Of a DNA stretch of 64,000 nucleotides, positions 17,020 through 41,509 are shown piece after piece. Position numbers and translations under genes: made by a program. The stretch covers positions 1 through 64,000 of the forward strand of contig JADZAP010000009.1 of the NCBI GenBank assembly GCA_020852705.1. The letters are read 5' to 3'. The notes beneath the pieces are model-generated. The model saw nothing but the letters and a program-made list of their open reading frames with translations, was not told the origin of the DNA and searched no databases. Numbering within the stretch: the first letter of the stretch is position 1; every line of letters begins with the position of its first letter. The stretch comes from Ignavibacteria bacterium. GTDB lineage: Bacteria; Bacteroidota; Ignavibacteria; Tepidaquicellales; OLB5.

Positions 17020-17052
17020 AGATTAAAATGTAATTTATAATATAGTAATTTT

Positions 17053-17511: not shown

Positions 17512-17518
17512 TTTTATT

Positions 17519-18148: not shown

Positions 18149-18292
18149 TGAATGTTTTAATTAATTCTGCAAATATACTATTAATTATTTATTTTTTTGT
18201 AAACTGTAATTTAGGAATTGAAACAATTTCAATACATTGAAGATATAATATAAAAAGTTTAATTTACTGTAAATTACTAAAAGGAGTTTTAT

Positions 18293-18769: not shown

Positions 18770-18774
18770 TAAAT

Positions 18775-19221: not shown

Positions 19222-19397
19222 AAGTATATTATATTCTGTTATATTACAAATATAAAAAAATTTATTTTAAAATAATTGCAATAAAAAAAATTACCGGATT
19301 ATAATTAGTTAAAATTATTTCAGAATTATTAATAAATTTTTAATGCATTTTGCCTTACCTTAAATGATTGCTATATTGCTTTAATTTATACATATTT

Positions 19398-20780
19398 TTG
19401 AAAATTTTCCTCACACATGCTTATTACTTGAAAAGTGATCCCAATGAATTGCGGATTATGAAGCCTTATGTCCCTTTAGGAATACTTTATATTTCAGCAT
19501 ATTTAAAACAGCATGGATTTAATGTTTCAGTATATGATACAACATTTAAAAGTTTTTCAGAACAAAAATCAGCTCTCCTGGCTGAAAAGCCTGTAATAAT
19601 TGCGATATACAGCAATTTAATGACCAAACTTAATGTATTGCCCTTAATTGAATGGATAAAAAGTTCAGCCGAATTAAAAAACAGCAGAATTGTTTTAGGC
19701 GGTCCTGAGCCGCCTCACCACTTTACAGAATTTTTAAATTTTGGCGCCGATATTATTGTTGAAGGCGAAGGCGAAGAAACAATGAGGAAGCTTTGCTGTG
19801 AACTTTTAAAGGAAAATCCCGAAATTGAAAAAGTTAACGGTATATTTTATAAAAAAAATAATGAAATATTTAAAAATCCACCGTGTCAAAAAATTAAAGA
19901 TATAGATACATTACCATTTCCGGATAGAAGTTCAATTGATCTATCTTTATATATGAATGCATGGAAGAATGCACACGGTTACAGTTCTTTAAACATTAGT
20001 ACAATGCGGGGATGCCCTTATACTTGCAAATGGTGCTCTCACAGCGTATATGGAGTAAGTTACAGAAGAAGATCCCCTGAAAAAACAGCAGACGAGATTG
20101 AATTTATTATCAGGAATTATAGCCCCGATACAATTTGGTTTGTGGATGATGTTTTTACTGTTTCGCATAAATGGCTGGGTAAACTTCTTGATGAGTTTAG
20201 AAAAAGAAATTTATCAATCAAGTTTGAGTGTATTTCGCGAAGCGACAGACTTAATGAAGAAGTGATTAAAATACTTAAAGAACTTGGGTGTATAAGGTTA
20301 TGGATAGGGGCAGAGTCAGGCTCTCAAACGGTTCTCGATCTGATGGAAAGGCGTGTAAATGCTGCAGATACCCGCGAAAAAATAATATTAACCCGAAAAT
20401 ACGGAATTGAAGCAGGAACATTTATAATGCTAGGTTACCCCGGGGAAAAAAAAGAAGATATTTTTGAAACTACCCGCCACTTAATTGATTCCAATCCTGA
20501 TATTTTTTTAACTACTGTTGCATATCCAATAAAAGGAACACCATTTTACAATGAAGTGGAAACAAATCTTATTACAGATAAAAAATGGAGCGAGAGAACA
20601 GACCGTGACCTTGATTTTAAAGGCAGATACTCAAAAAGATTTTATAAGCATGCAAACCGTTATTTAGTAAATGAAGTGAACCTGCATAAGATGAAAAATA
20701 GTAATGCGGGAGCAGCAGAAATAAGCAAAACATTCCTGAAAGCAAAGTTATCAAAATTAATGATGAGACTCATCTCATGA
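19398..20780 (+). CDS. B12-binding-domain radical SAM protein (paralogue 2)
   Basis: A 460-residue cobalamin-dependent radical SAM enzyme with the cluster motif RGCPYTCKWC and the follow-up GAESGSQTVLDLMERR. The start is set at TTG 19398 by alignment with the paralogue at 15595 (KIFLTHAYYLKSDPNELR against the equivalent N terminus); the frame extends 30 nt further to another TTG. It overlaps the following methyltransferase gene by 4 nt, and that one overlaps a glycosyltransferase by 4 nt, so the three form one translationally coupled operon. The substrate is unknown; a lipid or glycolipid is plausible. Confidence 0.9.
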   Translation: MKIFLTHAYYLKSDPNELRIMKPYVPLGILYISAYLKQHGFNVSVYDTTFKSFSEQKSALLAEKPVIIAIYSNLMTKLNVLPLIEWIKSSAELKNSRIVLGGPEPPHHFTEFLNFGADIIVEGEGEETMRKLCCELLKENPEIEKVNGIFYKKNNEIFKNPPCQKIKDIDTLPFPDRSSIDLSLYMNAWKNAHGYSSLNISTMRGCPYTCKWCSHSVYGVSYRRRSPEKTADEIEFIIRNYSPDTIWFVDDVFTVSHKWLGKLLDEFRKRNLSIKFECISRSDRLNEEVIKILKELGCIRLWIGAESGSQTVLDLMERRVNAADTREKIILTRKYGIEAGTFIMLGYPGEKKEDIFETTRHLIDSNPDIFLTTVAYPIKGTPFYNEVETNLITDKKWSERTDRDLDFKGRYSKRFYKHANRYLVNEVNLHKMKNSNAGAAEISKTFLKAKLSKLMMRLIS

Positions 20781-21568
20781 CCACCGCTGATACCAAATCG
20801 GCATTCAATTCAATTGCAACTGATTATGACAGGCGGGATAACCAAAACCATATACTTCAATGGATGCGCAGCGTTGTACACAAAGTTTATTTAAAACATT
20901 TGCCTAAGGGCGCGAAAATTCTTGAACTTAACGCTGGGACAGGAGTAGATGCAGTATTTTTAGCCGATAAAGGATTCAGTGTTTTTGCTACAGATATTTC
21001 AGATAAAATGATAGATTTAATAAAGACAAAAAGTAAAAGTGAAATTACAAAAATAGAAGCAAAGACATTATCTTTTGATGAAATTTCACAATTAAATGAA
21101 ATTAATTTTGATGCTGTCATTTCTAATTTCGGCGGACTTAACTGTATCAATGATTTTGGCAAACTTTCAGGTGATATTGCAGTAAAGCTTAAACATGAGG
21201 GATTATTTATTGCTGTAGTTATGAACAAAATATGCCCATGGGAAATATTTTATTTTTCCATTAGATTTAAATTTTCAGAAGCTCTCAGGAGGTTTAGAAA
21301 AAACGGAATAATGGCTATTCTGAACAGCGAGAAGGTATTAACATATTATTTTACACCTTACAAATTTGCTGCTGCTTTTAGCAGTAATTTTACTATAGTA
21401 AAATTATATACTTTAGGGCTATACACTCCGCCTCCATATCTGATTGGAATCTATAACAAATTTAAGATGCTTGTTAAATTGTGGATGAAAATTGACAAAC
21501 TTATATTTTCTTTGCCAGTATTAAATCGTTTTGGTGATCATTTTATAATTGTTATGAAGAAAAAATGA
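20777..21568 (+). CDS. Class I SAM-dependent methyltransferase
   Basis: A 263-residue methyltransferase. Motif I is ILELNAGTGVDAVFLA (about 49-64), motif II is FATDIS, and the post-motif region around FDAVISNFGGLNCI fits the Methyltransf_11/25 group. A C-terminal region around residues 170-230 with several aromatic residues may bind the substrate or membrane. It is joined by 4-nt overlaps to the radical SAM gene before it and to the glycosyltransferase after it, which points to modification of the same product. Confidence 0.9.
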   Translation: MTTADTKSAFNSIATDYDRRDNQNHILQWMRSVVHKVYLKHLPKGAKILELNAGTGVDAVFLADKGFSVFATDISDKMIDLIKTKSKSEITKIEAKTLSFDEISQLNEINFDAVISNFGGLNCINDFGKLSGDIAVKLKHEGLFIAVVMNKICPWEIFYFSIRFKFSEALRRFRKNGIMAILNSEKVLTYYFTPYKFAAAFSSNFTIVKLYTLGLYTPPPYLIGIYNKFKMLVKLWMKIDKLIFSLPVLNRFGDHFIIVMKKK

Positions 21569-22704
21569 TACCAGCCGCAAAAATTAATGTTGCATGGGTT
21601 ACCAGCGGATTTTACTTTGATGAAAATGATATGCAGGGAGCACCTGCCATATTTGATCTAGCAAATGAAATTTCTAAAGACCCGGAGATTGAACTTACTG
21701 TATTTGCACTCTACTATCCAAAATTTAAAAAAGAATATAATCTGAAAAATATAAAGGTATATACATTTTTTGACAGTCATAATGCAAAATTATCAAGTTT
21801 CAAAAAACTAAAGATATGGCGTTTGTTCAGGCGGAAATTTACCGAAATTCATAACATTAATAAATTTGATCTGATACATTCATTTTGGGCAGGTGAACCG
21901 GGCTATAATGCTGCAATTATGAGTAAAAAACTGAATATCCCGCTAATTGCAAATATTTGCGGCGGTGAGTTAGCTGCAATTCCTCAAATTAATTACGGCT
22001 CGCAGCTGAGAGCAACTCAAAAATATTTCATTAACAGAACTTTTGAACAGGCAGAAAAGATAGTGTGCGGGAGTGATTTTATTTTAAAAATAGCAGCTGA
22101 TATTTACTCTGTAAAAATTTTGGATAAATTTGTGAAAATTCCATTTGGTATTAAAACAGAAAAATTTAGTCCCCAAAAAAAATCAAATATCATTAATAAT
22201 GAACCTGTATTAATAAACATAGCACATATTATACCCGTAAAAGCCCATAATGATCTATTAGAAGCTACATTAAGAGTAAAAAAAATTTATCCAAAGGTAA
22301 AATTAAAAATATACGGCAGTGATAATAATAATTTTGCTGATAAATTATCACGAATTCCCGATTTGAATGAAAATGTTGAAATTTATGGATTTACAGAGCA
22401 TGACAAACTTCCGGATATTCTAAAGAACGGAGATATTTTTGTATTAAGTTCATTATATGAATCCCAAAATGTAGCAATTCTTGAAGCTGCATTTTCAGCC
22501 TTACCAGTGGTTTCAACAGATGTTGGTATAGCACGCGAAATAACCCCATATATTTCAGCACCCGGCGATATAAACGCTTTGACTGAGAATATTTTAAAAG
22601 CTATCAAAGAGTACAAAACAGAATATAAAGATTTAACTCAAAAGTTTTCACTTCAATCAACTACCGGAAAATATAAAGTGTCGTATCAAAATATTAAGCG
22701 GTAA
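21565..22704 (+). CDS. Glycosyltransferase family 4 protein
   Basis: A 379-residue GT-B glycosyltransferase. The C-terminal domain carries the GT4 signature, an E-x7-E pair in YESQNVAILEAAFSALPVVS, preceded by VEIYGFTEHDKLPDILKNGD. The N-terminal domain has HSFWAGEPGYNAAIMSKKL and a conserved GGE/GSD pair. It would transfer a sugar from a nucleotide donor to a lipid or small-molecule acceptor in the cytoplasm. It ends the three-gene coupled operon; its 3' end faces the GT9 gene with a 12-bp gap. Confidence 0.9.
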   Translation: MIPAAKINVAWVTSGFYFDENDMQGAPAIFDLANEISKDPEIELTVFALYYPKFKKEYNLKNIKVYTFFDSHNAKLSSFKKLKIWRLFRRKFTEIHNINKFDLIHSFWAGEPGYNAAIMSKKLNIPLIANICGGELAAIPQINYGSQLRATQKYFINRTFEQAEKIVCGSDFILKIAADIYSVKILDKFVKIPFGIKTEKFSPQKKSNIINNEPVLINIAHIIPVKAHNDLLEATLRVKKIYPKVKLKIYGSDNNNFADKLSRIPDLNENVEIYGFTEHDKLPDILKNGDIFVLSSLYESQNVAILEAAFSALPVVSTDVGIAREITPYISAPGDINALTENILKAIKEYKTEYKDLTQKFSLQSTTGKYKVSYQNIKR

Positions 22705-22716
22705 AATTAAATATTA

Positions 22717-23724
22717 TTAAAGAAGAGATAATAATTTTTCTAAAACAAACTCCGGTGTAAATCTATTAAGGCATCTTATATCACCATATTTACAATCAGG
22801 TTTCATGCAATTACCGCACTCCAAGTCAGATGAATTAAAGCAAAGAGTGTGATTGCCGGGCTGGCAGGTCCAGTCACTGCGGGTAGCCCCAAGTAATAGG
22901 ATACCCGGTTTGCCAAGCGCCCATGTAATATGGAACAAGCCCGAATCATCGCTTACAGCACCGCTGATGCAAGAAATAACTCCTGTAATTTCATATAATG
23001 AAGTTTTGCCAACAAGATTGATTAAATTTTTATTGAATCTGCGGGAATATTCATTTGCCTTTTCCTTTATATCATTTGTTCCTGCCAGAAGTATAATAAA
23101 ACCTTCATCAATCAATTTTTGTGCAAGTGCAAAATAATTTTCGTCACCCCATCTCCGTGTTTCATATAAACCTGCCGGATTAATAAGTATTATTTTTCTA
23201 ATTCCATCCCAGCCGTTTTTCTTTAAAATAGTTTCACCTTTATGCAATGTATCAAAAGATAGTTGAGGTTTGCATAAATTTAAAACCTCTTTAAAACCTG
23301 CCCGGTCAAATGTTTCTAAAACACGGATTGAATGAGGCTTCGGAGCATAATTATCAAATTCACTAAAGTCCTTAACACCTGTAATTTTCCTAACTAAGCG
23401 GCTGTATCTGTTGTTTTGAAGATCTATTATTTTATCATATTTCATTCTTCTTAAAACAGCACTAATTTTAAATATAGATTTATATCTGGATAATTTACCG
23501 GAATATCCTCTATAACTTGTGTGTTTATAATCAAAATTTCCCTCCGGGAAATATATATTATTAAAAATATTAAAAGCATCTGCCAGAGTTGAATAATTTT
23601 TTAATGTAAGCAGATCAATTTCAGCATCAGGGTAGTTTTTTTTGAATGATATACACGCAGGAAAAGATAATGCTGTATCTCCGGCAGCATGCAGCCTTAT
23701 AACCAGTATTTTCAAGACTTTCAT
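22717..23724 (-). CDS. Glycosyltransferase family 9 (heptosyltransferase-like)
   Basis: A 335-residue GT9 protein. The N-terminal RLHAAGDTALSFPA and the C-terminal VSDDSGLFHITWALGKPGI are the ADP-heptose:LPS heptosyltransferase signatures, and the Cys-containing stretch ECGNCMKPDCKYGD is common in this family near the C terminus. It probably adds a heptose or related sugar to the LPS core or to a glycolipid. The ABC exporter gene follows upstream on the same strand, 50 bp away. Confidence 0.9.
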   Translation of the reverse strand: MKVLKILVIRLHAAGDTALSFPACISFKKNYPDAEIDLLTLKNYSTLADAFNIFNNIYFPEGNFDYKHTSYRGYSGKLSRYKSIFKISAVLRRMKYDKIIDLQNNRYSRLVRKITGVKDFSEFDNYAPKPHSIRVLETFDRAGFKEVLNLCKPQLSFDTLHKGETILKKNGWDGIRKIILINPAGLYETRRWGDENYFALAQKLIDEGFIILLAGTNDIKEKANEYSRRFNKNLINLVGKTSLYEITGVISCISGAVSDDSGLFHITWALGKPGILLLGATRSDWTCQPGNHTLCFNSSDLECGNCMKPDCKYGDIRCLNRFTPEFVLEKLLSLL

Positions 23725-23774
23725 CTTACAATTTTTTCTGATGTAGAAAAATTAATTCTACCAATGTTATTTGG

Positions 23775-25418
23775 CTAAATTTGTATATGTTTATAAACTT
23801 TAGGGATAAATTCTGTGTGATGACTGAATATAATTGTTGTTTTATCATTACGTTGATTAAGTAGGTTATGCCAAAGTTCTGCTTCAAGATTTCCCTCGAG
23901 CATTGAGTTAGCTTCATCTAACACCAGAATAGCAGGTTCATTAACCAAAGCTCTTGCAATTGCTATTCTGGATCTCTGCCCAGCACTTAATGTTATACCC
24001 CGCTCAGCAATATTTGTATCAGCACCATTAGGCAGCTGGTTAATAAATTTTTCAGCCATACTGATTTTTAATATATCATAAAATTTTTTTTCAGAGATCT
24101 CATTATTTTTTATTAATATGTTTTCGCGGATTGTTCCTTCAAAAAGTATTGCTTCTTGTCCCACAAAACCAATATTGTTTCTTAGGGTAAAGGTGTCAAC
24201 ATTTTTAATATTTTTATCATCTATCAGAATTTCACCGTTATTGGCTTTATAAAAACCCAAAATTAAACTGGAAATTGTAGATTTCCCCGAGCCCGAAGGT
24301 CCCGTAATAAGCAGCCACTCCCCAGGGTTAACAGAAAATGATATATTGTTTAATACCAATTTTTTACTGTTGTACCCAAATGATACATTTTTAAATTCAA
24401 CTTTCCCCTTTAGTGTATCAATATTTGGTTTATAAAAATTATCAACTTCATTTAAATCTGTTAAATTGTTCAGGTCAATAGTTTCTGTAATTTTTATTGT
24501 TGAACCTGAAATGTGATAATAACGGGAGTATACTCTTCCTAATGAAAGAAATGCCATAGTTAAAGAATATGAATAAAAATAAAATGCAACCGCACTTCCC
24601 GGCGACCAGCTTGATGAACCATAAATACCAATGTAAAAAATAAACAGCAGTAATAAAGAAACTATCACAAAAACAGATTGTGTGCTCTTTGCCTGATAAG
24701 AAGATGACTTAACTTCATTTACCAGAGCGGCAATAAGTTTATTTTTATATTTTTCAATTCTTCTTTCTTCAAGCAATAATGCTTTTACCTCGCGAATGCC
24801 GGTTAATGATTCATCCATTACGGCATTGGCTAAGGCATGCTCCTTCTGACTTTCACCCGATGACACCTTAATTTTCCTGCTGAAATAATACATTAGAGGA
24901 ATTATACATAAAATTATTAAAGTAACTATACCGGTTGCAAACGGGTTGAGCATCAGCATTAATATCAGACATCCAGTTATAAAAAGAATATTCTGATATG
25001 CAGGAACAAGTATTCCCGAATATACATTCTGAAGCATAGAAATATCTTCAGTTGCACGGGATGTTAACTTTCCAACTGCTTCATCTTTAAAAAAGCTAAC
25101 AGGGAAGTTAAGTAAAGTTTTAAAATATGCGGTTCTTATGTTATTTCTGAGCTGAAAGCCTAGCTGCTGCATTAAAATATTAGTGTAATACCCCAATATT
25201 GTTGATAATATTATTATTCCGCCTATTAAAACTATTAACAAAGTAATATTTAAATCCGGGCTGCCATCGTTACTATGAAGCAAATGATCCACCATAATTT
25301 TAAACAGCCATGGATATATCAGATTTGTTACAGAAACAAAGGTTAAACAAATAAGTGCAATAATCAGCTTTTTTCTGCTGTATTTAACTGACCGAAATAA
25401 TAATTTTATTAGCTTCAA
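23775..25418 (-). CDS. ABC exporter, fused permease and ATPase (MsbA/multidrug type)
   Basis: A 547-residue half transporter: a six-helix transmembrane domain (about 15-300), then a nucleotide-binding domain with Walker A GPSGSGKST, Q-loop in FVGQEAILFEG, signature LSAGQRSRIAIARAL, Walker B ILVLDEANSML and the H-loop in FSHHTEF. It is somewhat short because the C-terminal tail is cut close to the H-loop. It works as a homodimer in the inner membrane. Being in the same direction as the GT9 gene and next to lipid/glycan-modifying genes, it may flip a lipid-linked product, but a drug exporter role cannot be excluded. In Walker B the usual Glu is present (DEA). Confidence 0.9.
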   Translation of the reverse strand: MKLIKLLFRSVKYSRKKLIIALICLTFVSVTNLIYPWLFKIMVDHLLHSNDGSPDLNITLLIVLIGGIIILSTILGYYTNILMQQLGFQLRNNIRTAYFKTLLNFPVSFFKDEAVGKLTSRATEDISMLQNVYSGILVPAYQNILFITGCLILMLMLNPFATGIVTLIILCIIPLMYYFSRKIKVSSGESQKEHALANAVMDESLTGIREVKALLLEERRIEKYKNKLIAALVNEVKSSSYQAKSTQSVFVIVSLLLLFIFYIGIYGSSSWSPGSAVAFYFYSYSLTMAFLSLGRVYSRYYHISGSTIKITETIDLNNLTDLNEVDNFYKPNIDTLKGKVEFKNVSFGYNSKKLVLNNISFSVNPGEWLLITGPSGSGKSTISSLILGFYKANNGEILIDDKNIKNVDTFTLRNNIGFVGQEAILFEGTIRENILIKNNEISEKKFYDILKISMAEKFINQLPNGADTNIAERGITLSAGQRSRIAIARALVNEPAILVLDEANSMLEGNLEAELWHNLLNQRNDKTTIIFSHHTEFIPKVYKHIQI

Positions 25419-25581
25419 TTTTTAATATTATTAGTTTAAAATACAATATAGGTTTGTAAAAAAATACATTTTAATTAAGTCATTAAATTATTATTCAGTT
25501 TTTACATTATAGAATAATATTGAGAATAAAATTATTAACTTTATATAAACCTTTAGGTGTTTTTTATTGCTTATATATTGT

Positions 25582-25589
25582 TAAATTTG
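25582..25589 (+). promoter_or_regulatory. TAnnTTTG minus-7 element before a radical SAM gene
   Basis: TAAATTTG matches the Bacteroidota-type minus-7 consensus exactly and ends 7 nt before the ATG at 25597. The transcript would begin at, or within a few bases of, the start codon, so the mRNA may be leaderless. A clear minus-33 TTTG is not seen. Confidence 0.45.
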
Positions 25590-25596
25590 CTGTTCA

Positions 25597-27093
25597 ATGA
25601 TAGCACTTGTTAATCCACGTTCAGCAAATTGGGGATTTCGTGTTCCTAATTCAATACTTACTCTGGGTGCCTTTCTTGAAGAAAGATATGAATATGAAAT
25701 AATTGATGAAAATCTTGGCACAAATGCCGGGTATAAAATTGCTAAGCTTGTTCAAAAAGGAATTAAGTATATTGGAATAACTGTGATGCCAGCACTTCAG
25801 TTACGCCGGGCTTATGCCATTTCTAAGGAAATTAAAGAGCGGTTTCCTACAGTTACTATAATTTGGGGCGGATATTTTCCCTCACTGCATCCGGCAACTG
25901 TACTGAATTCAGGAATAGTTGACTATGTTCTCAAAGGTCACGCTGAAAATTCATTTATTGAGCTTATTGATTTACTTGAATCAAAACCCGAAGCAAAAAA
26001 GTTGAATGAAATTGCCGGGTTATCATATATTATGGAAGGGAAAATTTTTCACAATAAAAAAGCTGAACCAATTATTCCCGATATAATTCCAAGGCTGCCT
26101 TATCATAAAGTTGATGTTGAAAAATATTTAAGCGTAGCAAATACTTATTTAGGTCCCCGTACTATTGGATATCATTCCAGTGTTGGATGTCCGTTTCTAT
26201 GCGGATTTTGTGCCGTTGCTGGAATTTATAAAGGTAAATGGATTGGAAGAAGTGCAGAGCTTACAGCAGGTGATATAATTTTCCTTAAAAATAAATATAA
26301 TATTGGAGCTGTAGAGTTTCACGATAATAATTTTTTTGTTGCAGAAAAACGTGTATATGATTTTGCCAAAGCAGTAAATGGACTTGGACTGGGATGGTGG
26401 GGTGAGGCACGACCTGATACAGTTATGAAATTTTCTGATGATACATGGCAAATGATGGCTGATGCAGGATGTAAAATGATATTCTATGGTGCTGAAACCA
26501 GTAATGATGATTTATTAAAGCTGATGCATAAAGGAGGTACGCAAAATGCCCAGACACTTATTGATCTTGCCGAAAAATCAAAACAATTTGGTATTGTGCC
26601 GGAGCTTTCATTTGTGCTTGGAAATCCAACCAATAACGTAACTGGTGATATTGCAATAGATCTTAAATTTATTAAACAGATAAAAAAGATAAACCCCGCG
26701 TCAGAAATTGTACTATACACATATTCACCGGTTAACTTTGAAGATTCTGAAATCTCAATTGCTGCAAAGATGAAAGGATTTGACTACCCCAAAACATTAG
26801 AAGAGTGGGTTTCACCCAAATGGCAGAATTTTGACCTTCGTAAAAATCCGCTTACCCCCTGGTTAAAACCGCATCATTTTAAAATGATAAGAAATTTTGA
26901 TAAGGTACTAAATGCATATTATCCTTCAAACAGCGACCTGAAAATTCGCGGATGGAAACGTTCATTGTTAAAATTAATGGGCGGCTGGCGGTATAGGGCC
27001 GGTTTTTATAATGCACCGTATGAAATTATGTTAACCCAAAGATTTCTAAAATACCGTCAACCGGAAGTTGAAGGTTTTGCCTTTGAAAATTAA
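25597..27093 (+). CDS. B12-binding-domain radical SAM protein (BchE-like)
   Basis: A 498-residue radical SAM enzyme with an N-terminal cobalamin-binding-like domain, MIALVNPRSANWGFRVPNS, and GGYFPSLHP, which are typical of the BchE/HpnJ-like group. The cluster motif VGCPFLCGFC has C198, C202 and C205. It is less similar to the other two radical SAM proteins in the region than they are to each other. Members of this group carry out oxygen-independent cyclisations and methylations of lipids, hopanoids and tetrapyrroles. The substrate is not visible here. Confidence 0.9.
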   Translation: MIALVNPRSANWGFRVPNSILTLGAFLEERYEYEIIDENLGTNAGYKIAKLVQKGIKYIGITVMPALQLRRAYAISKEIKERFPTVTIIWGGYFPSLHPATVLNSGIVDYVLKGHAENSFIELIDLLESKPEAKKLNEIAGLSYIMEGKIFHNKKAEPIIPDIIPRLPYHKVDVEKYLSVANTYLGPRTIGYHSSVGCPFLCGFCAVAGIYKGKWIGRSAELTAGDIIFLKNKYNIGAVEFHDNNFFVAEKRVYDFAKAVNGLGLGWWGEARPDTVMKFSDDTWQMMADAGCKMIFYGAETSNDDLLKLMHKGGTQNAQTLIDLAEKSKQFGIVPELSFVLGNPTNNVTGDIAIDLKFIKQIKKINPASEIVLYTYSPVNFEDSEISIAAKMKGFDYPKTLEEWVSPKWQNFDLRKNPLTPWLKPHHFKMIRNFDKVLNAYYPSNSDLKIRGWKRSLLKLMGGWRYRAGFYNAPYEIMLTQRFLKYRQPEVEGFAFEN

Positions 27094-29188: not shown

Positions 29189-30841
29189 ATGAAAAGAATT
29201 CTATTTCTTCTATTAGTTTCAAGTGTTCTATACTCACAGCAAACTGCAAAGATAACGTATAACTTCTATTCCAACGGTACACCTACGGGTACACCGCCTC
29301 TTGTTTTAGAAGCATCGGGAATAATATCTAAATACATCAACGCTTCCGGGGAAATGTTTTATATTGACTATATTTCCGGCAAATCATATCAGTCAGCAGC
29401 ACTAAAAACCGGTGAAATAATCACCGATGAAGAATTAATTTCATCATACCCTGTACCTGAATTACACAGCGATACATTGACAATATTGGGTTATTTGTGT
29501 AAAAAAGCACACGTCGTAATACGATCCAATCACATTGATATATGGTACACAGATAAAACCGGTTTTAAAGGAACACCTGCAATAAATATCGGACCCGCAT
29601 TGGGCTTGATATTAAGAATTGTAAGAAACGGAAATTATGAGATCCGTGCTGAAAACATTGAAATTAAACCGCTGAATATTTTTCTGCCACGATCTTTCGG
29701 AAATATTGTTGAACTGCCTTACTATCGTTATTTACTAACTGCTCAAAATTATACAACCCTAACAATTTTTGAAAATCAAAAGATCAATTATGGAGATAAA
29801 CCGGTAAATATTTTTACCAATGAACCGGATATTACGTACCGCTTTTCAGAAGGCACAGTTATTCTGAAAAAAGTGAAACTGCCGCAAAATATGGGCGGGC
29901 ATTCAGTAACCGCTGAGCTAACTGAGCGCTCTGCAGGCGATGCCTATGACAGAACAGGCTCTTTATTTATAATACCTGATCTTACCAAAGATACTTCCAT
30001 AACTTTTATTGATGCATTTTTAAACGGCATAACTGCTTTGCCAAAGTATGATGCAAGAAACAAAAAAGATTACCGCGGGATTACTTTAACCGAAAAATAT
30101 ACTCCGCCAATTGAGCTAGTGAGATTTATTACACCATTTGGCATAGGCAGTTATAACAGCCAGGTACAGGTTTATGGTGTAAAATGGGAGGATTCCGTTA
30201 CATACAAACAGGATATTACAAACATGCTTCCAGTTTTGCAGGGTGAAGTTTGGTTTGGAGTATTTATTGGCTGTTATGATAAGGGCGGTCATGAAGTAAG
30301 CTTACGCCTCAAATATTTTCCTGATGATGTGCCTCAGGAATCTATCCCCCAGCCAAACGGATACATAATGCCGTTAATTTTTACAACAAATATAATGGAA
30401 GCAAGTTCACAGGAATATGCAACTTTATTTGAAACCGATACCCTTTCTCTTTGGGTTGATATTCCAAACGGTATTAAGGAGCTTACCTTAAGATATATTT
30501 CAACCGGTCATGGCGGCTGGGGTGGTGGTGATGAATTCAACAAGAAAGTGAATTATATTTTTGCCGATAATAAACTGATATACAACTATATTCCGTGGCG
30601 GGATGACTGCGGGATGTACAGAAAGTATAATCCGGCATCAGGGAATTTTCCAAACGGTATGTCGTCAAGTGATTTCAGCCGCTCGGGCTGGTGCCCGGGC
30701 TCAACAAGTTTACCTGTTGATATACCGCTTAACTTAAAACCGGGGAGGCACAAAATTTCTGTATATATACCGCTTGGAAAACCCGAAGGCACAAGCTTCA
30801 GCTCTTGGAATGTATCAGCAGTATTAACTGGCAAATACTGA
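29189..30841 (+). CDS. Secreted PNGase F-like peptide-N-glycosidase with GLPGLI-type N-terminal domain
   Basis: A 550-residue secreted protein. A signal peptide (MKRILFLLLVSSVLYSQQ) is followed by a roughly 150-residue domain resembling GLPGLI proteins (LGYLCKKAHV, IDIWYTDKT and PALGLILRI), then a PNGase F-type pair of jelly-roll domains. The latter is shown by LQGEVWFGVFIGCYDKGGHE, STGHGGWGGGDEF (about 440-452) and the Cys/Trp-rich WRDDCGMYR and SGWCPGS. PNGase F cleaves N-glycans from Asn and turns that Asn into Asp. I chose ATG 29189 over TTG 29183. A protein-glutaminase-like gene follows after 16 bp. Confidence 0.87.
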   Translation: MKRILFLLLVSSVLYSQQTAKITYNFYSNGTPTGTPPLVLEASGIISKYINASGEMFYIDYISGKSYQSAALKTGEIITDEELISSYPVPELHSDTLTILGYLCKKAHVVIRSNHIDIWYTDKTGFKGTPAINIGPALGLILRIVRNGNYEIRAENIEIKPLNIFLPRSFGNIVELPYYRYLLTAQNYTTLTIFENQKINYGDKPVNIFTNEPDITYRFSEGTVILKKVKLPQNMGGHSVTAELTERSAGDAYDRTGSLFIIPDLTKDTSITFIDAFLNGITALPKYDARNKKDYRGITLTEKYTPPIELVRFITPFGIGSYNSQVQVYGVKWEDSVTYKQDITNMLPVLQGEVWFGVFIGCYDKGGHEVSLRLKYFPDDVPQESIPQPNGYIMPLIFTTNIMEASSQEYATLFETDTLSLWVDIPNGIKELTLRYISTGHGGWGGGDEFNKKVNYIFADNKLIYNYIPWRDDCGMYRKYNPASGNFPNGMSSSDFSRSGWCPGSTSLPVDIPLNLKPGRHKISVYIPLGKPEGTSFSSWNVSAVLTGKY

Positions 30842-30857
30842 TTTTTAAATTCAGCAC

Positions 30858-31559
30858 ATGAAAATAATTTTAATAATATTAATACAGTTTAGCATTTTAT
30901 TGCCTAGTCTCTTTTCTCAAACAGGAAATATTCTGTACAGCTCTTATTCAGATACATTAGAAAATCAAAAAATTAATTATAATGCAGATTCAATATACAG
31001 CTACATTGAAGCAAATAAACATCTGATAGATTTTAGTGACTGCAATATTTGCAAATCAAGGGCACATATATTAAGCAGGATGATTGAAAAAAAATTTAAA
31101 GGAATTAATGTTTATAAAGTATGGCTAATTGCAGATTGTAAACGGCTTTCACAAAAAGAAAAGTACAAATACAAACAGAATGTATATTTAAACCTCGCTG
31201 GTAAATGCAGTAACTGGGTTTATCATGTAGCACCTGCTTTGCTGATAAACGGTGATACAATTGTGTTTGATCCTTCAACACAAATAAAACCCGTAAGTAT
31301 TAAAGAATGGGCATATAAAATTATACCTCAAAACGGAAGTGCATATTTAATTATCAAAGATAAAAGTTACTACTTTTATCCCGAAAGCAAGGATGATTAT
31401 TTTATTGATGAGACTGATAATTGGGAAACGGGTGATGTAAAGATGAAGGATGAAAAATACCTGCGCTCAATTGATGAAATTCTGTTTGTAAAGTATGGAT
31501 ATTTTGAACCATGGAAATTCAATTATTTTCTTTCAGAAATATTAAAGCTTGTAGATTAA
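30858..31559 (+). CDS. Secreted protein-glutaminase-like deamidase (Cys-His-Asp)
   Basis: A 233-residue secreted protein: signal peptide up to about SLFSQ, then a transglutaminase-like fold. The probable triad is C65 in NICKSRAH, H123 in WVYHVAPALL and D138 in IVFDPS, an order and spacing seen in Chryseobacterium protein glutaminase, which turns protein-bound Gln into Glu. Short spacing to the PNGase F-like gene suggests cotranscription. Alternative: a general transglutaminase-like peptidase. No pro-domain like that of the characterised enzyme is evident. Confidence 0.72.
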   Translation: MKIILIILIQFSILLPSLFSQTGNILYSSYSDTLENQKINYNADSIYSYIEANKHLIDFSDCNICKSRAHILSRMIEKKFKGINVYKVWLIADCKRLSQKEKYKYKQNVYLNLAGKCSNWVYHVAPALLINGDTIVFDPSTQIKPVSIKEWAYKIIPQNGSAYLIIKDKSYYFYPESKDDYFIDETDNWETGDVKMKDEKYLRSIDEILFVKYGYFEPWKFNYFLSEILKLVD

Positions 31560-31601
31560 ATTGGATGTGTGAATTATTATAAACATGATTTTCAGGAAAA
31601 T

Positions 31602-32336
31602 ATGATTATAACTTCAAATTTATTTACTGCACAAAAAAACATTATTCATGGTATATCAACACGTTTCCCTATTGAAGAACCATCATTCAACAATTTAAGC
31701 AAACATACCGGAGATAACATAGAAAACGTTATAAAAAACCGTTCCCGGTTTTTTGATTCGATTGGTATAAACCAGGCAAACCTTGTTCATGCCAATCAAG
31801 TTCATGGCGTAAATGTAACCTTAGTAAATAAACCGGGTCTTTACCCTGCAACAGATGCATTAATTACAGCAACAAAAAATCTTTTTCTTGTTATATCTGT
31901 TGCTGATTGTATGCCGGTTATGTTATTTGACCGCCAAAATAGAGCTATTGCAAATATACATTCAGGATGGAGAGGCACTCAGAAAAACATAACAGGTAAA
32001 ACAATTGAATTGATGCGGGAAATGTTTAATACAAATCCCGCTGAGCTTATAGTGTTTATGGGTCCTGCAATAAGCTGGCAGAATTTTGAAGTTGATAAAG
32101 ATGTAGCAGATTTGTTCCCTGGTAAATATGTAATTCCAAAAACTGAAGCTAAAGGAAAATATCTAATTGATACCGGAACAATGGTTTATGAAAGTCTTCT
32201 GGAAACAGGAACTAAAAAATCTAACATAGAGCGCTCTATGTTATGTACTTATGATAATATGAATTTACATTCTTACCGACGGGATAAAGATATTTCAGGA
32301 AGAATGTTTGCTGTAATAGGTATTAATGATAAATAA
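31602..32336 (+). CDS. pgeF: YfiH/PgeF laccase-domain protein (purine nucleoside phosphorylase type)
   Basis: A 244-residue protein of the multicopper polyphenol oxidase/laccase-domain family (YfiH, PgeF). The metal and active-site motifs are NQVHG, SVADCMPVM and NIHSGWRGT. Members edit peptidoglycan by removing mis-incorporated serine (PgeF) or act on purine nucleosides. Start: ATG 31602 fits the family N terminus better than the GTG 33 nt upstream, which is in the short gap after the previous gene. Confidence 0.9.
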   Translation: MIITSNLFTAQKNIIHGISTRFPIEEPSFNNLSKHTGDNIENVIKNRSRFFDSIGINQANLVHANQVHGVNVTLVNKPGLYPATDALITATKNLFLVISVADCMPVMLFDRQNRAIANIHSGWRGTQKNITGKTIELMREMFNTNPAELIVFMGPAISWQNFEVDKDVADLFPGKYVIPKTEAKGKYLIDTGTMVYESLLETGTKKSNIERSMLCTYDNMNLHSYRRDKDISGRMFAVIGINDK

Positions 32337-35518: not shown

Positions 35519-36295
35519 TTAAAAATCTTTTCTGTTAAAAATGCGGAGAGAAAGCACCGTTGGCACAATTGCCCAGAACAACAGGAGAATGACTGAAAAT
35601 ACCATACCGTAATCTGAACCGAAAAATTTTTGCAAAGTTGCTCCTGTATAACCCATTAGTGCCGATACATCAAGTTGTAAAAGGATAAGCATTCTTGCAA
35701 GGTCAACAGGATTAAGTCCGGAAATTATAATAGTAGCTTTTTCAAGGGGATAGGAACTGAATAAATAATATAACAGCAGCACAAGTGCATCAAATATAAC
35801 TGATAAATAAAACCAAATAACAAGAGATAGTCCTATGCCGCGGGCTTTATCCTTATTTTTTACCGAAGATAAAAATGCAAGAGCAGTGAATATGAATGTT
35901 AGCATCACGCCGCTTACAATAAGTTGAAAAGCACCTGAGATACCGCCGTAAATAAGCAAAGGTAAGCCAGTACCAACAGAAAAACCGGCAGCAAGTGCGA
36001 GTGATAATCCTGCATATTCTGCCCAGAAAATATTTTTTCTCTTAACCGGCATTGCAAGAAGCATTTCCATGAACTCTCTGGAACTATAAAAATGAATAGT
36101 TCCAAAAATTATACTTACTAATGGAACAACCAGCAGAACTATATTCAGCAGACTTAAAACTGCTTTAGTTACATCTTTGCCAATAAAAATAATTCCAAAT
36201 GAAATAATCAATAAAAGCAGGGTGTAGATTATTATCATCTTGCTTCTGAGCACATCATATAAAACATATTTAAATATTTTTAAAGCAGTATTCAT
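35519..36295 (-). CDS. nosY: NosY, ABC transporter permease for NosZ maturation
   Basis: A 258-residue membrane protein with about six hydrophobic helices and the ABC-2/NosY pattern (YSSREFMEMLLAMPVKRKNIFWAEY in two pieces: YSSREFMEMLLAMPVKR then KNIFWAEY). It pairs with NosF, which it overlaps by 4 nt (start ATG within the NosF stop region), and with NosD to feed a sulfur species or copper for the CuZ site of nitrous oxide reductase. It is the last gene of the nos operon. Confidence 0.9.
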   Translation of the reverse strand: MNTALKIFKYVLYDVLRSKMIIIYTLLLLIISFGIIFIGKDVTKAVLSLLNIVLLVVPLVSIIFGTIHFYSSREFMEMLLAMPVKRKNIFWAEYAGLSLALAAGFSVGTGLPLLIYGGISGAFQLIVSGVMLTFIFTALAFLSSVKNKDKARGIGLSLVIWFYLSVIFDALVLLLYYLFSSYPLEKATIIISGLNPVDLARMLILLQLDVSALMGYTGATLQKFFGSDYGMVFSVILLLFWAIVPTVLSLRIFNRKDF

Positions 36296-37023
36296 TGCTC
36301 TGCGCCTCTTGTTTCACCAGAAGTCATTTTGTGAGCTATTGCTTTATTAAGGTTTTCTTTGCCTGTTAGCCGGTATAGTTTTTCTTTTATTTCATCAAAA
36401 TAAATTTTACCATCAAGCATATAAATTATGCGGTCAGCAATAACCTCAACCTCGCTTACAATATGGGAAGTGATTATAATAAGTTTGCCATTTTGTTTAT
36501 CTTCAAGTATTTTGGTTTTAACAATTTCGCTTGAAAGCGGGTCAAGCCCTGCTGTTGGTTCATCAAGAATTATAATTTCGGTATTAAACAAAAAAGCAGC
36601 TGCACAGCTTAAACGCTGTTTCATCCCTCCAGAAAGCTGTCCAATTTGTTTGTTATACATTTCTGCAATATTTAGTTTTTCTATAAGTTCTGTATCGTAA
36701 ACTATATTATTTCCCCTGATATCCTTTATCATTTCAATCACTTCTTTTACTTTTAAATTGTCAGGGAAACATGAATATTGAGGCATATATCCTATATGTT
36801 TTTTGTATGCGCTATTACCGTTAATTTTGCAGTCTTTTACATATATATTGCCTTCATTAGCTTTTGCAAGTCCCAAAATGCATTTTAATAGTGTTGTTTT
36901 ACCACTGCCATTTGGACCCATTACAGCAACAACGCTGCTGTTTCCAATTTCCAGTGAAATATCTTTCAGTACTTCAATTTTTCCGAATTTTTTCTTTAGA
37001 CCTTCAATCTTTATCATTGCCAT
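36292..37023 (-). CDS. nosF: NosF, ABC transporter ATPase for NosZ maturation
   Basis: A 243-residue ABC ATPase: Walker A GPNGSGKTT (about 35-43), signature LSGGMKQRLS, Walker B IIILDEPTAGLDP and the H-loop in ITSHIVSEVE. Together with NosY and the beta-helical NosD it forms the CuZ-assembly transporter. It lies 8 bp after NosD and overlaps NosY. Confidence 0.94.
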   Translation of the reverse strand: MAMIKIEGLKKKFGKIEVLKDISLEIGNSSVVAVMGPNGSGKTTLLKCILGLAKANEGNIYVKDCKINGNSAYKKHIGYMPQYSCFPDNLKVKEVIEMIKDIRGNNIVYDTELIEKLNIAEMYNKQIGQLSGGMKQRLSCAAAFLFNTEIIILDEPTAGLDPLSSEIVKTKILEDKQNGKLIIITSHIVSEVEVIADRIIYMLDGKIYFDEIKEKLYRLTGKENLNKAIAHKMTSGETRGAEQ

Positions 37024-37031
37024 AGAAATAC

Positions 37032-38282
37032 TTAATTATATTGTGTATACAATTCATTATTTATTGCTTTCATTTCCGGTTCGTTATCCATAAGAGATTC
37101 GGGCGTGAACACAGGTACAACTCTTTCAGCCATATCAAGAAGCTCTGCAACAAAACTGCGAAGCAAAAACACCGATTCTGGTGTTTCTTCAACAATCTTG
37201 CTGAAAAGACTAACCGGCCTAAATGGCACATCACCTTTTCCATCTTTATTTAGGTCATAACCGTTGTATTTATCCCAGTAATTTTGGGTAAACAGGTTGT
37301 TATTGAATGTTGAATTTGTAGTGACATCAAAAGTATTTGCAAAAAAATTATTTGCCTTTATAGTATCATCAGTGCAATTGCCAAGAATTTTAAGAGCATA
37401 ACCGTTGCCTGTAAGATTATTGTTTGCAATAAGCAGGCGAGTGCCTCCTTCACAATAAATTCCGACTGTGTTATACGAAAATGTGTTTCTTTCAATGTAA
37501 CTGTCAGTAATTTCCTTCAGCAGCAAACCGTAAGAATTAGGTCCTTTGTTATTTTCAAACCTGTTGTTTATCATCCTTACATTTTTTGTGTACATAACCG
37601 CTACCCCGGCACCGTTGTTAGAAAATACATTATTTTCATATACATTATTGTTGCTAAACATAAAGTGCAGCCCGTATCTAATATTCTTAAAACTTGAATT
37701 ACTTTCTGCTTGGCAGTTAACCGAAAACTCTATATATATTCCATCGCGGTGTCCGCTTATGGTATTATTTTTTACATTAATATTTGTACACTTCCATAAA
37801 TGTATCCCGTTACCTGAAGAGCTTTCAGTTACAGCATTGCTTGATGCTTCATTTTGCAATACATTACAATAACTGCTGTTTGAAAGAAAAATACCGAAGT
37901 AATTATTGTTTAGTTTATTTGAAATAATATTACAGCAGGCAGAGTTTTCAATTCTTAAAGCAGCGTAATCTTTCAATCCCCGATTACCGGAGTTATGTAT
38001 GCTGAATCCCTTAACAGTAACGCTATCAGATTGGATAATAATAATATCTCCGTTAAATAAACCATCTATTACCGGATAATTTTCACCAATAAGCTCTATA
38101 TTTTTATCAATTAAAATACCTGATTCATTGTAAGTGCCTTCTTTTATAATAATTCTATCTCCATTATCAGCCAAAGAAACAGCATTTTTGATGCTTTCGC
38201 CGGGATTAACAGTAATTTCTTTAGATAGATTTACTGAATTTATTAACGCAATTAGTGCTATTATAAAAATTACCTTATTCAC
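37032..38282 (-). CDS. nosD: NosD, periplasmic beta-helix protein for CuZ assembly
   Basis: A 416-residue periplasmic protein with signal peptide and a parallel beta helix of CASH/NosD type: many repeats with N-N, for example ENNVFSNNGAGVAVMYTKNV, and VNPGESIKNAVSLADNGDRI at the start of the mature part. NosD delivers sulfur and/or copper to apo-NosZ with NosFY. The C-terminal 60 residues with FLLRSFVAELLDMAERVVPV form a conserved NosD tail. Confidence 0.94.
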   Translation of the reverse strand: MNKVIFIIALIALINSVNLSKEITVNPGESIKNAVSLADNGDRIIIKEGTYNESGILIDKNIELIGENYPVIDGLFNGDIIIIQSDSVTVKGFSIHNSGNRGLKDYAALRIENSACCNIISNKLNNNYFGIFLSNSSYCNVLQNEASSNAVTESSSGNGIHLWKCTNINVKNNTISGHRDGIYIEFSVNCQAESNSSFKNIRYGLHFMFSNNNVYENNVFSNNGAGVAVMYTKNVRMINNRFENNKGPNSYGLLLKEITDSYIERNTFSYNTVGIYCEGGTRLLIANNNLTGNGYALKILGNCTDDTIKANNFFANTFDVTTNSTFNNNLFTQNYWDKYNGYDLNKDGKGDVPFRPVSLFSKIVEETPESVFLLRSFVAELLDMAERVVPVFTPESLMDNEPEMKAINNELYTQYN

Positions 38283-38315
38283 TTTATAATTAAAGTTAAT
38301 TTAAATCAAACTAAA

Positions 38316-38783
38316 CTATTTACTCACCTTAAATTTTGTCAGCAGGTCATCCCAGTTTTTAAGTTCTCCTCCGTATTGTGTTTGGCTTACAGCGGCATCA
38401 TTTTTATTGCTGTAAGCGCTCAGGTTAGCCCCCATGGGACTTGGAAATTTTTCACTGATAAGGTAAGATGCCTCTAATGCATTTGTAAGCTGTTTTGGGT
38501 TTGCTGAATCTATTACATAAAATCCAGCAGCATCGGAGTAGGCAATATCTCCAAGACTTAATGCATTAAACATGCATTCAGCAGCATCATATTTATATAT
38601 TTTCCCCTTTTTTGTGACTATTTCAGCACCAAAACGCTGCTCTGAAATATTCATCTTGCAATGCGAACATTGATCTGTACCAAAGTTTATTGGATCAGGG
38701 GTGGTACTGCATGCCATAAACATCGGCAGCCCCAATAACAGTAGTATTTGTATCTTTATTATATTACGCGTGAACAAATTCAT
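38316..38783 (-). CDS. nosL: NosL, copper-binding lipoprotein
   Basis: A 155-residue lipoprotein: lipobox MFMAC (Cys at 25) and the copper motif CSHCKM followed by FGAEI, typical of NosL/NosL-like metallochaperones. It delivers Cu(I) for NosZ. It overlaps the preceding membrane-protein gene by 20 nt, so it is translationally coupled to it. Confidence 0.93.
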   Translation of the reverse strand: MNLFTRNIIKIQILLLLGLPMFMACSTTPDPINFGTDQCSHCKMNISEQRFGAEIVTKKGKIYKYDAAECMFNALSLGDIAYSDAAGFYVIDSANPKQLTNALEASYLISEKFPSPMGANLSAYSNKNDAAVSQTQYGGELKNWDDLLTKFKVSK

Positions 38784-39429
38784 TTTTTATTTTAGCTGAA
38801 GAGATTTTTTCAGTCTGTGGTTTTACCTCTTTAATCACAGCATTTTTCTTAATACTTTGTGTTACTTTTTTTCTGCTTTTTAATTCATAAACCAGTAAAG
38901 AAACGGATAGTAAACCTGCACCGATTACAAACCAGCCCCCTATGTCGGGATATGAATGTGCCGTAAAGTTAAGAAGCTGTTTACTACCTATTAATGGCGG
39001 CTGGTAACTCATACCCGGGACTATAATTGCAGCATCTTCATTTAAGTTATGTCCGTAGTCGTACTCCCATATATAAAAATCTATACCTCCTGCAATTCCA
39101 ACAATTACAAAAACTATAACAAATGTCCAAAGCAGTTTTTTATTTCCTGCAATTCCGGTTATTACACCAAATATAATTAACCCCGCAAGTATATAAGGCA
39201 TCATTGTAAGTTCTTTAATTGAATCAGGTTCAATCTTTTTCATACCTATGTAGTGATTCAAACCATTTATAGTATTCAAATCTCCTGATATTTTATTTAA
39301 CCAAATCTTCATCCCAAGTCCTTCGGGATACTGCGGCGCTTCAAGATCTATCATCCAAAGCGGTGTAAAAAATGCAGTAACCATTGCCAGCGCCGAAACT
39401 ATAATTAATATTCTTGTTGTCTTTTTCAT
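38764..39429 (-). CDS. Membrane protein of the nos cluster (NosB-like)
   Basis: A 221-residue protein with about four transmembrane helices (near 7-27, 75-95, 100-122 and 165-185), a periplasmic segment with conserved-looking Trp, His and Asp residues and a lysine-rich cytoplasmic tail. In clade II nos clusters a polytopic protein (NosB) usually follows nosZ, and this gene has that place. There is no NosR. Identity with NosB is inferred from topology and position only. Confidence 0.6.
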   Translation of the reverse strand: MKKTTRILIIVSALAMVTAFFTPLWMIDLEAPQYPEGLGMKIWLNKISGDLNTINGLNHYIGMKKIEPDSIKELTMMPYILAGLIIFGVITGIAGNKKLLWTFVIVFVIVGIAGGIDFYIWEYDYGHNLNEDAAIIVPGMSYQPPLIGSKQLLNFTAHSYPDIGGWFVIGAGLLSVSLLVYELKSRKKVTQSIKKNAVIKEVKPQTEKISSAKIKNEFVHA

Positions 39430-39478
39430 TTTTTTAAAGGAGTCCCCGCATTAAGCAGGGACTCTGTGATATTTAAAT

Positions 39479-41509
39479 CTATTTATTTTTGTTATCGAGA
39501 TAAAATTTTATTTCACCGCTGCTTCCTGCGGGCTGTACCCGTAAATAACCCTGCATTTCCTGATGCAGTGCACTGCAGAAATCAGTACAGTAAAATGGAT
39601 ACACTGTTGCAACTTTTGGCTCCCATGTAATTGTTTGGGTTTCGCCCGGCATAATAAGCATTTCGGAAGTGTTGTTTCCTTTTACTGCAAAGCCATGCGG
39701 TATATCCCAATCCTGCTCTAAGTTAGTAACATGAAAGAAAACCTTATCGCCTACTTTAATTCCTTCTATTACATCAGGTGTAAAGTGAGACCTTATCATT
39801 CCTAAATATACGTGAACTTCATTTCCTTTTCTTTCAACCCTTGCATCGTTTATAGTTTTAACTGCCTGAGGATGTTTATTTTCATCAATTTTGAAAATTT
39901 TCACTGAGTTCTTTTCAATCAGATCAGCCGGACAGCTTTGAGCATAATGCGGCTCACCAATTGTCGGAAAATCAAGAAGAAGTTTCATCTTCTCACCTGA
40001 AATATCATAAAGCTGGCATGATTGTGTCAGTTCCGGACCAGTTGGAAGGAATCTATCTTTTGTAATTTTATTAAGAACAAGCAGATATTTTCCCCAAGGT
40101 TTTTTGCTGTCTCCGCCTGGTATACTTATATGACCTACTGAATAAAATGAAGGGGCTCTGTCAATAATTTCGAGAGTTTTTACATTCCATTTTACAACCT
40201 CACTGCTTACAAACATTGATGTATATGCAAATCCTTTATCATCAAATTCAGTATGCAATGGACCCAGTCCCGGCTTCTGAACTTCACCATGTAAAGCAGC
40301 TTCATATTTTATTACAGGAATTCCTCCAGCTTCGCCATCAAACTCTTTGTTTTCAATTGCTTTTAACATCTTGCTGAATGAAAAAACAGGAATAACAGTT
40401 GAAAGTTTTCCGGCACCAATCATATATTCGCCGCTTGGATCAATATCAATTCCATGAGGTGATTTTGGACAGGGAATATAATATATCATTCCCGGGCATT
40501 CCTTCGGGTCAAGCATTTTTACCGTTTTAAGAACTTCACTTGATGCTGTATGTGTTGCTTCATCATAAGAATTGTGGTAGTACTCTGCTTCTTTATCTTT
40601 ACCTTTGCCTTGTGCAATATATTCTTCAGCTTTTTTCCAGTTTACAGCCATAATAAAATCTTTATCTTTTTGGCTTGCATTAACTTCCAGAAGCGTGTGT
40701 GCTTCTTCTGTGTTGTAAGTAGATAAAAAGAACCAGTCGTGTGATGGACCTTTGCCCGCATGACTAAGATCATAATCATAAGGAGGCGATATGATTTGAA
40801 AAGCAATGTTCATTTTTCCGCTGTTTTTATCAACCTTAATAAAGCTTACCGTTCCGTTGAACTTTTCTTTGTATGAATCTATCGGTACATCAAGTTCATT
40901 TATAGGAATACTGAAGCGGGTTCCGCAAACAACGTATTCAGAGTTTTCTGTGGTAAAAGGAGATGAATGATTACCTGCGCTATTGGGTATTTCCAGTATT
41001 TCAGCTGTACGGAAAGTCTTCAGATCAATTCGTGCAATTCTTGGTGTATTGTTACCGTTGATAAAAACCCATTTCCCGTCAGGTACCCCATCAGTCATTG
41101 AAAGCTCAGGATGGTGTGCATCATCCCAGGGCATAAAACCGTGGGTTGTCATAAGCATTGGTTTGGTTTCTTCGGTGTAGCCCCATCCTTTTTCAGGATC
41201 AACTGAAAATACAGGAATAACCCTGAAAAGTCTGCCGGATGGCAGACCATAAACTGCTAGCTGGCCGCTGAATCCTCCAGAAACAAATGAATAAAATTCA
41301 TCGTGTTTGCCGGGGGCAACATATACTTTGTTTGCTGCATCTTCGCTCATATTAAGAGTTGTACTGCCATCTTTCTTTCCGCATCCTGAAAATATTATTG
41401 CTGATATAATAATTGCAAAAATTAAAATTGCCGTTAAAGGAGGAACCATATGTGTGGATGAAATTAGAGACTTCACCTGATTTGTAAATGTCTTTAGATT
41501 TGGTTTCAT
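39479..41509 (-). CDS. nosZ: Nitrous-oxide reductase NosZ, clade II type
   Basis: A 676-residue NosZ. It has a seven-bladed-propeller domain with the CuZ histidines (for example the DDAHHPE motif and the THGFMPWDD region) and a C-terminal cupredoxin with the CuA site CTDFCSALHQEMQ (C641, C645, H649 and M652). The N terminus has no twin-arginine motif; it is a Sec-type signal with a lipobox, FSGC (C43). Sec export is the mark of clade II, and the lipobox predicts a membrane-anchored form. It catalyses N2O + 2 e- + 2 H+ to N2 + H2O in the periplasm, taking electrons from cytochrome c. It is preceded by a cytochrome c gene and followed by a NosB-like gene. Confidence 0.97.
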   Translation of the reverse strand: MKPNLKTFTNQVKSLISSTHMVPPLTAILIFAIIISAIIFSGCGKKDGSTTLNMSEDAANKVYVAPGKHDEFYSFVSGGFSGQLAVYGLPSGRLFRVIPVFSVDPEKGWGYTEETKPMLMTTHGFMPWDDAHHPELSMTDGVPDGKWVFINGNNTPRIARIDLKTFRTAEILEIPNSAGNHSSPFTTENSEYVVCGTRFSIPINELDVPIDSYKEKFNGTVSFIKVDKNSGKMNIAFQIISPPYDYDLSHAGKGPSHDWFFLSTYNTEEAHTLLEVNASQKDKDFIMAVNWKKAEEYIAQGKGKDKEAEYYHNSYDEATHTASSEVLKTVKMLDPKECPGMIYYIPCPKSPHGIDIDPSGEYMIGAGKLSTVIPVFSFSKMLKAIENKEFDGEAGGIPVIKYEAALHGEVQKPGLGPLHTEFDDKGFAYTSMFVSSEVVKWNVKTLEIIDRAPSFYSVGHISIPGGDSKKPWGKYLLVLNKITKDRFLPTGPELTQSCQLYDISGEKMKLLLDFPTIGEPHYAQSCPADLIEKNSVKIFKIDENKHPQAVKTINDARVERKGNEVHVYLGMIRSHFTPDVIEGIKVGDKVFFHVTNLEQDWDIPHGFAVKGNNTSEMLIMPGETQTITWEPKVATVYPFYCTDFCSALHQEMQGYLRVQPAGSSGEIKFYLDNKNK

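What the first reader, a model, noticed from the sequence alone, without database searches (positions are those of the whole stretch)
29189..31559. Secreted PNGase F-like and protein-glutaminase-like enzymes side by side
One converts glycosylated Asn to Asp, the other converts Gln to Glu with ammonia release; both are exported and 16 bp apart. Joint deglycosylation and deamidation would make foreign proteins more soluble and easier to digest, or supply nitrogen. I know of no described pairing.
Basis: partly seen in the sequence, partly recalled or inferred. Interest (0 to 1): 0.62.

Follow-up and report, generated by a model that had tools for sequence, protein, structure and literature searches.

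The report
Paired secreted protein-deamidating enzyme genes
Two genes for predicted exported enzymes, one that cuts sugars off asparagine and one that looks like a glutamine-deamidating enzyme, sit side by side in most sequenced members of one bacterial genus; both enzyme types are known, and whether they work as a team is untested.

Summary
Window 29189-30841 encodes a type II PNGase (N-terminal bowl domain plus both catalytic domains; best solved relative PNGF-II; the catalytic and alpha-1,3-fucose-pocket residues are present). Window 30858-31559 encodes a Pfam Gln_deamidase_2 protein with the Cys65-His123-Asp138 set, 16 bp downstream. Both have signal-peptide-like N-termini and lack the T9SS tail, so the periplasm is at least as likely as the medium.

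The pairing is not unique. The 13 genomes held for the genus (one is Chlorobi bacterium OLB5, from an anammox reactor) include 10 with both genes: 8 side by side, 1 broken by contig ends, 1 unlinked. The 16-bp spacing is not conserved (about 0 to 440 bp), and the deamidase keeps pgeF as neighbour more faithfully than PNGase. In a Chryseobacterium-type genus both genes often co-occur but lie hundreds of kilobases apart.

The deamidase is a deep, divergent branch without the roughly 114-aa propeptide of Chryseobacterium enzymes, so its activity is inferred. No member of the genus has GH92, GH29 or STT3 by Pfam search, so the substrate is probably foreign and the aim is probably peptide rather than glycan. 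Joint action is plausible but unproven: a new variant of known kinds.

The parts
29189..30841 (+). Type II PNGase (peptide-N-glycanase F-II-like): signal-peptide-like N-terminus, N-terminal bowl-like domain, two-part catalytic domain; no T9SS tail
   Evidence: PF22252/PF09112/PF09113 above cut-off; PNGF-II 4r4x 3e-124, 3.6e-155 by profile
29945..29953 (+). Codons Y253-D254-R255: aromatic-Asp-basic active-site motif of PNGases
   Evidence: Invariant in 10 genus sequences; motif described in PMC12381499; residues checked
30269..30271 (+). [quoted passage not shown]
   Evidence: Alignment, role from PMC9522356, invariant in genus; the register to PNGF-II numbering was counted by hand
30398..30400 (+). 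Codon E404: position of E419 of PNGF-II that replaces the role of E118 of PNGase F
   Evidence: Alignment, role from PMC9522356, invariant in genus
30842..30857 (+). 16-bp spacer; no terminator-like site on the + strand, so co-transcription is possible here
   Evidence: Sequence, scan
30858..31559 (+). Protein-glutaminase-like (Gln_deamidase_2) enzyme, 233 aa, signal-peptide-like N-terminus, no long propeptide, extra conserved C-terminal stretch
   Evidence: PF18626 3.1e-14; 8z3i 9e-7; alignments
31050..31052 (+). Codon of predicted nucleophile C65
   Evidence: Invariant in genus and aligned with CYARAH of characterised-type enzymes
31224..31226 (+). Codon of predicted catalytic H123
31269..31271 (+). 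Codon of predicted catalytic D138
31569..32336 (+). pgeF/yfiH-type gene (PF02578), the most faithful neighbour of the deamidase in the genus; probably a positional neighbour
   Evidence: PF02578 5.5e-61; neighbour in 12 of 13 deamidase copies

Best explanation
A genus-conserved gene pair for two predicted exported amidases that act on foreign protein. The first is a type II PNGase: it hydrolyses the bond between N-glycan and Asn, leaving Asp, and by its residues should accept core alpha-1,3-fucosylated (plant- or invertebrate-type) glycans. [quoted passage not shown] The likely use is to unmask and loosen glycoproteins or imported glycopeptides for proteolysis, not to feed on the glycan and not to edit the cell's own N-glycans. 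Shown: presence, family, active-site residues, conservation of linkage in the genus, absence of GH92, GH29 and STT3 by Pfam search. Inferred: export route, the deamidase's activity, substrates, and that the two enzymes share a substrate.
For: Family and active-site matches. Linkage in 8 of 10 genomes that have both genes, on both sides of the genus's main deamidase split; in G006 the PNGase-deamidase-pgeF block stays together while the upstream neighbours differ. Low dN/dS on three sequence pairs: 0.17 and 0.13 for the deamidase, 0.11 for PNGase. No GH92, GH29 or STT3 in 13 genus genomes. A genus member, OLB5 (LLZO01000366), is listed under accession LLZO as a Chlorobi bin of an anammox reactor (PMC4821891), and Chlorobi-affiliated bacteria of anammox granules are reported as probable degraders of extracellular peptides (PMC5460018; the main organism there is a different Chlorobi lineage). 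Type II residue assignments from PMC9522356 and PMC12381499.
Against: Spacing is loose in most genomes (about 0-440 bp, with apparent repeat-like sequence in one clade), so a single operon is not conserved. The deamidase occurs without PNGase (G005, G009) and PNGase without the deamidase (G011). In the Chryseobacterium-type genus the two are unlinked, and deamidase presence is negatively associated with a strong PNGase match (Fisher p = 0.0007, not corrected for relatedness). The deamidase fails NCBIfam's protein-glutaminase equivalog (16.7 against 250 bits).
Confidence: 0.5

Rival explanations
1. The adjacency is inherited gene order only: both enzymes are real, but they work independently and no shared substrate exists.
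For: pgeF adjacency, for which no functional tie is expected, is even better conserved (12 of 13 copies); the methyltransferase-metallophosphatase pair upstream is also kept; intergenic distance is variable and inserts occur; each gene is found without the other.
Against: The block survives in G006 where upstream order is lost, and across 40-45% amino-acid identity of the deamidase.
Confidence: 0.33
2. The second protein is not a protein-glutaminase but another papain-like Cys-His-Asp enzyme (for example a transglutaminase-like or specific deamidase) acting in the cell envelope.
For: Only 53 bits to PF18626; deep separate branch within the family; extra conserved C-terminal stretch and no propeptide; NCBIfam equivalog not met.
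Against: Nucleophile, His and Asp motifs align in order with protein-glutaminases; PDB best hit is a protein-glutaminase domain protein.
Confidence: 0.15

Closest known systems
PNGF-II (PNGase F type II) of Elizabethkingia meningoseptica, PDB 4r4x
   Same: Domain order (bowl domain plus catalytic domains), active-site motif, glycine and glutamate of the alpha-1,3-fucose pocket
   Different: Sequence divergent; found next to a deamidase gene
PNGase of Bacteroides (Phocaeicola) massiliensis, PDB 7zgn
   Same: Type II, bowl domain, type I signal sequence with likely periplasmic location
   Different: Studied there as part of plant N-glycan breakdown with GH92 mannosidase; no GH92 or GH29 found in this genus
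Protein-glutaminase of Chryseobacterium proteolyticum (EC 3.5.1.44), PDB 2zk9
   Same: Cys-His-Asp motifs in the same order; predicted export
   Different: No 114-aa propeptide (PMC6132073), extra C-terminal stretch, very low overall similarity

Membership tests
Type II PNGase (PNGF-II group) | Both N-glycanase domains above Pfam cut-off | tested here: met
   PF09112 and PF09113
Type II PNGase (PNGF-II group) | N-terminal bowl-like domain | tested here: met
   PF22252 1.7e-25
Type II PNGase (PNGF-II group) | Gly at the E118 position and compensating Glu | tested here: met
   G361 and E404, invariant in genus
Type II PNGase (PNGF-II group) | Release of core alpha-1,3-fucosylated N-glycans | not testable with these tools
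   needs enzyme assay
Gln_deamidase_2 (PF18626) | Score over the curated cut-off | tested here: met
   53.5 bits against 25
Protein-glutaminase (EC 3.5.1.44), Chryseobacterium type | Cys-His-Asp triad in order | tested here: met
   C65, H123, D138
Protein-glutaminase (EC 3.5.1.44), Chryseobacterium type | Pre-pro-mature layout with about 114-aa propeptide | tested here: not met
   Signal-like segment runs almost directly into the catalytic part in all genus copies
Protein-glutaminase (EC 3.5.1.44), Chryseobacterium type | NCBIfam equivalog NF040782 over cut-off | tested here: not met
   16.7 against 250 bits
Protein-glutaminase (EC 3.5.1.44), Chryseobacterium type | Papain-like fold | tested here: inconclusive
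   AlphaFold model from 2 sequences has mean pLDDT 37.7, not usable
Protein-glutaminase (EC 3.5.1.44), Chryseobacterium type | Deamidates protein-bound Gln | not testable with these tools
   needs enzyme assay

The most novel reading that the evidence does not exclude
A dedicated two-enzyme amide-hydrolysing unit for protein scavenging: a type II PNGase coupled with a constitutively active, propeptide-less protein-glutaminase of a new subfamily that works in the periplasm on imported glycopeptides.
Probability: 0.2. Interest if true: 0.55.

Novelty: new variant of a known kind. Interest (0 to 1): 0.36.

Why it matters
Protein-glutaminases and PNGases both have practical uses; a deamidase that appears to need no propeptide removal could be easier to produce, and a type II PNGase from an uncultured wastewater lineage would be useful for plant-type glycans. 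Ecologically it would suggest that these bacteria, at least one of which comes from an anammox reactor, are equipped to open up foreign glycoproteins. If the enzymes prove uncoupled, the pairing is an ordinary neighbourhood.

Tried and rejected
Structure prediction of the deamidase from window plus OLB5 sequence gave mean pLDDT 37.7; no fold search was run on it. Viral contig search found no relatives. Cell-own N-glycan processing was considered and set aside because STT3 was not found in 13 genomes (the controls that rang were all archaeal, so a divergent bacterial PglB could be missed). Glycan catabolism as the main aim was set aside because GH92 and GH29 were absent; other N-glycan-active families were not searched. 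One promoter/terminator scan was uninformative: hits below shuffled expectation. Literature searches for a described pairing of the two enzymes found none in the open-access library, which does not cover most subscription journals.

Full report
What is there. The window carries two + strand genes 16 bp apart: 29189-30841 and 30858-31559. The first matches the three Pfam models that make up a type II PNGase and PNGF-II of Elizabethkingia meningoseptica at 3e-124. The second matches Gln_deamidase_2 and, weakly, solved protein-glutaminases. Neither has a T9SS C-terminal sorting domain by Pfam. Both N-termini look like signal peptides by eye; no predictor was run.

Active sites. [quoted passage not shown] I counted that register by hand from the printed alignment; it is consistent for PNGF-II and for the B. 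massiliensis enzyme. All these residues are invariant among ten genus sequences. In the deamidase C65, H123 and D138 are invariant in thirteen genus copies and align with the motifs of Chryseobacterium-type enzymes.

How the deamidase differs. C. proteolyticum protein-glutaminase is made with a 21-aa signal peptide, a 114-aa pro-sequence and a 185-aa mature part (PMC6132073). In the window protein the nucleophile is residue 65, so there is no room for such a propeptide, and the same is true of all genus copies. The genus copies form a separate deep branch from the other PF18626 proteins examined and the window protein fails the NCBIfam equivalog. The activity is therefore inferred from motifs.

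Distribution in the genus. Thirteen genomes of the genus were searched. The deamidase is in 12 (13 copies) and a full type II PNGase in 11, counting the interrupted one of G003. Of the ten genomes with both, eight have them side by side on one strand (G000, G001, G002, G003, G006, G008, G010, G012), in G004 both lie at contig ends in compatible positions, and in G007 they are unlinked. In G003 the PNGase reading frame is interrupted, which may be an assembly error. The spacing ranges from about zero to about 440 bp. The deamidase is followed by a pgeF-type gene in 12 of 13 copies, including both G005 copies and G009, which lack the PNGase. So the deamidase-pgeF adjacency is the more faithful one. 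Gene trees of the deamidase and pgeF share the split between G005/G006/G009 and most others; the cluster occurs on both sides, so it is probably ancestral to the genus, with losses. The PNGase tree places G006, G007 and G011 outside the rest. For the G003 row of that tree I joined two pieces of the interrupted frame.

Outside the genus. In 46 other relatives no deamidase was found by protein search. In an even sample of 395 genomes of the phylum, 12 have PF18626 and 31 have PF09112. Three genomes outside the genus have both with a strong PNGase match, none linked; Fisher p = 0.006, without correction for relatedness. In the genus of G259, 69 of 118 genomes have PF18626 and 117 have PF09112. 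Where both listed matches lie on one contig they are some hundreds of kilobases apart by the listed coordinates, which I checked by eye and not by script. There the deamidase is negatively associated with a strong PNGase match (p = 0.0007); the counts for both Fisher tests were read off the tables by hand.

Substrate reasoning. No GH92, GH29 or STT3 match was found in the thirteen genus genomes. This argues against full N-glycan breakdown of the gut Bacteroides type and against an own N-glycosylation system of the STT3 type, though the STT3 controls that rang were all archaeal. The remaining reading is access to foreign glycoprotein or glycopeptide. OLB5 was found under LLZO01000366; accession LLZO is a Chlorobi bin in PMC4821891, and Chlorobi-affiliated bacteria in anammox granules are described as probable degraders of extracellular peptides in PMC5460018, mainly for a different lineage. 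PMC9522356 notes that type I signal sequences of Bacteroides PNGases suggest periplasmic action on imported glycopeptides; the same may hold here.

Selection. dN/dS was computed for three sequence pairs only: deamidase G010-G002 0.112/0.646 = 0.17, deamidase G010-G004 0.087/0.694 = 0.13, and PNGase G010-G008 0.136/1.203 = 0.11. The pairs were compared position by position without a codon alignment, so the values are rough. All three are low, as expected under purifying selection. No pair involving the window genome or G012 was computed.

Start codons. In G002, G004, G010 and G012 no ATG, GTG or TTG lies ahead of the signal-like segment within the stretch examined, except that G012 has an ATG inside it; a CTG would give a plausible signal peptide. 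The low dN/dS measured for G010 against G002 and G004 suggests that these three genes are still functional despite this; for G012 it was not measured.

Verdict. Two known enzyme kinds, one of them a divergent variant, form a gene pair kept in most of one genus. Functional coupling is possible and testable but not shown.

Noticed in passing
L080, L081, L090, L092 (G002, G004, G010, G012), deamidase start: No standard start codon ahead of the signal-like segment (G012 has an ATG only inside it); CTG-AAA-ACT-AAA would give a plausible signal peptide. Possible non-canonical start; dN/dS is low for G010 against G002 and G004, not measured for G012.
   Followed up: partly
L080, L090, L092 spacers between PNGase and deamidase: Spacer holds repeat-like sequence shared between genomes (ATACATCAGCGATGGGCAAAGCCCATCGAAGAT-type), seen by eye; the G004 contigs end near here.
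   Followed up: no
L002:1225-2547 (G000:C45): Second PNGase-like protein with a T9SS sorting tail (PF09113 and PF18962), a candidate for a truly secreted PNGase; similar weak matches in several genus members.
   Followed up: partly
G468 contig C2, about 204-217 kb: Nine PF18626 copies in one genome, seven of them clustered on one contig: an expanded deamidase family.
   Followed up: no
window 35519-41509 -: Nitrous oxide reductase-type cluster (nos_propeller, NosD, likely ABC transporter genes) shortly downstream; in G007 the deamidase lies next to the matching genes.
   Followed up: no
window 15595-27093 +: Three radical SAM proteins, two with a B12-binding domain, near methyltransferase and glycosyltransferase genes.
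   Followed up: no
L093 (G003:C366), PNGase: PNGase frame interrupted in Chlorobi bacterium OLB5; decay or assembly error not resolved.
   Followed up: no
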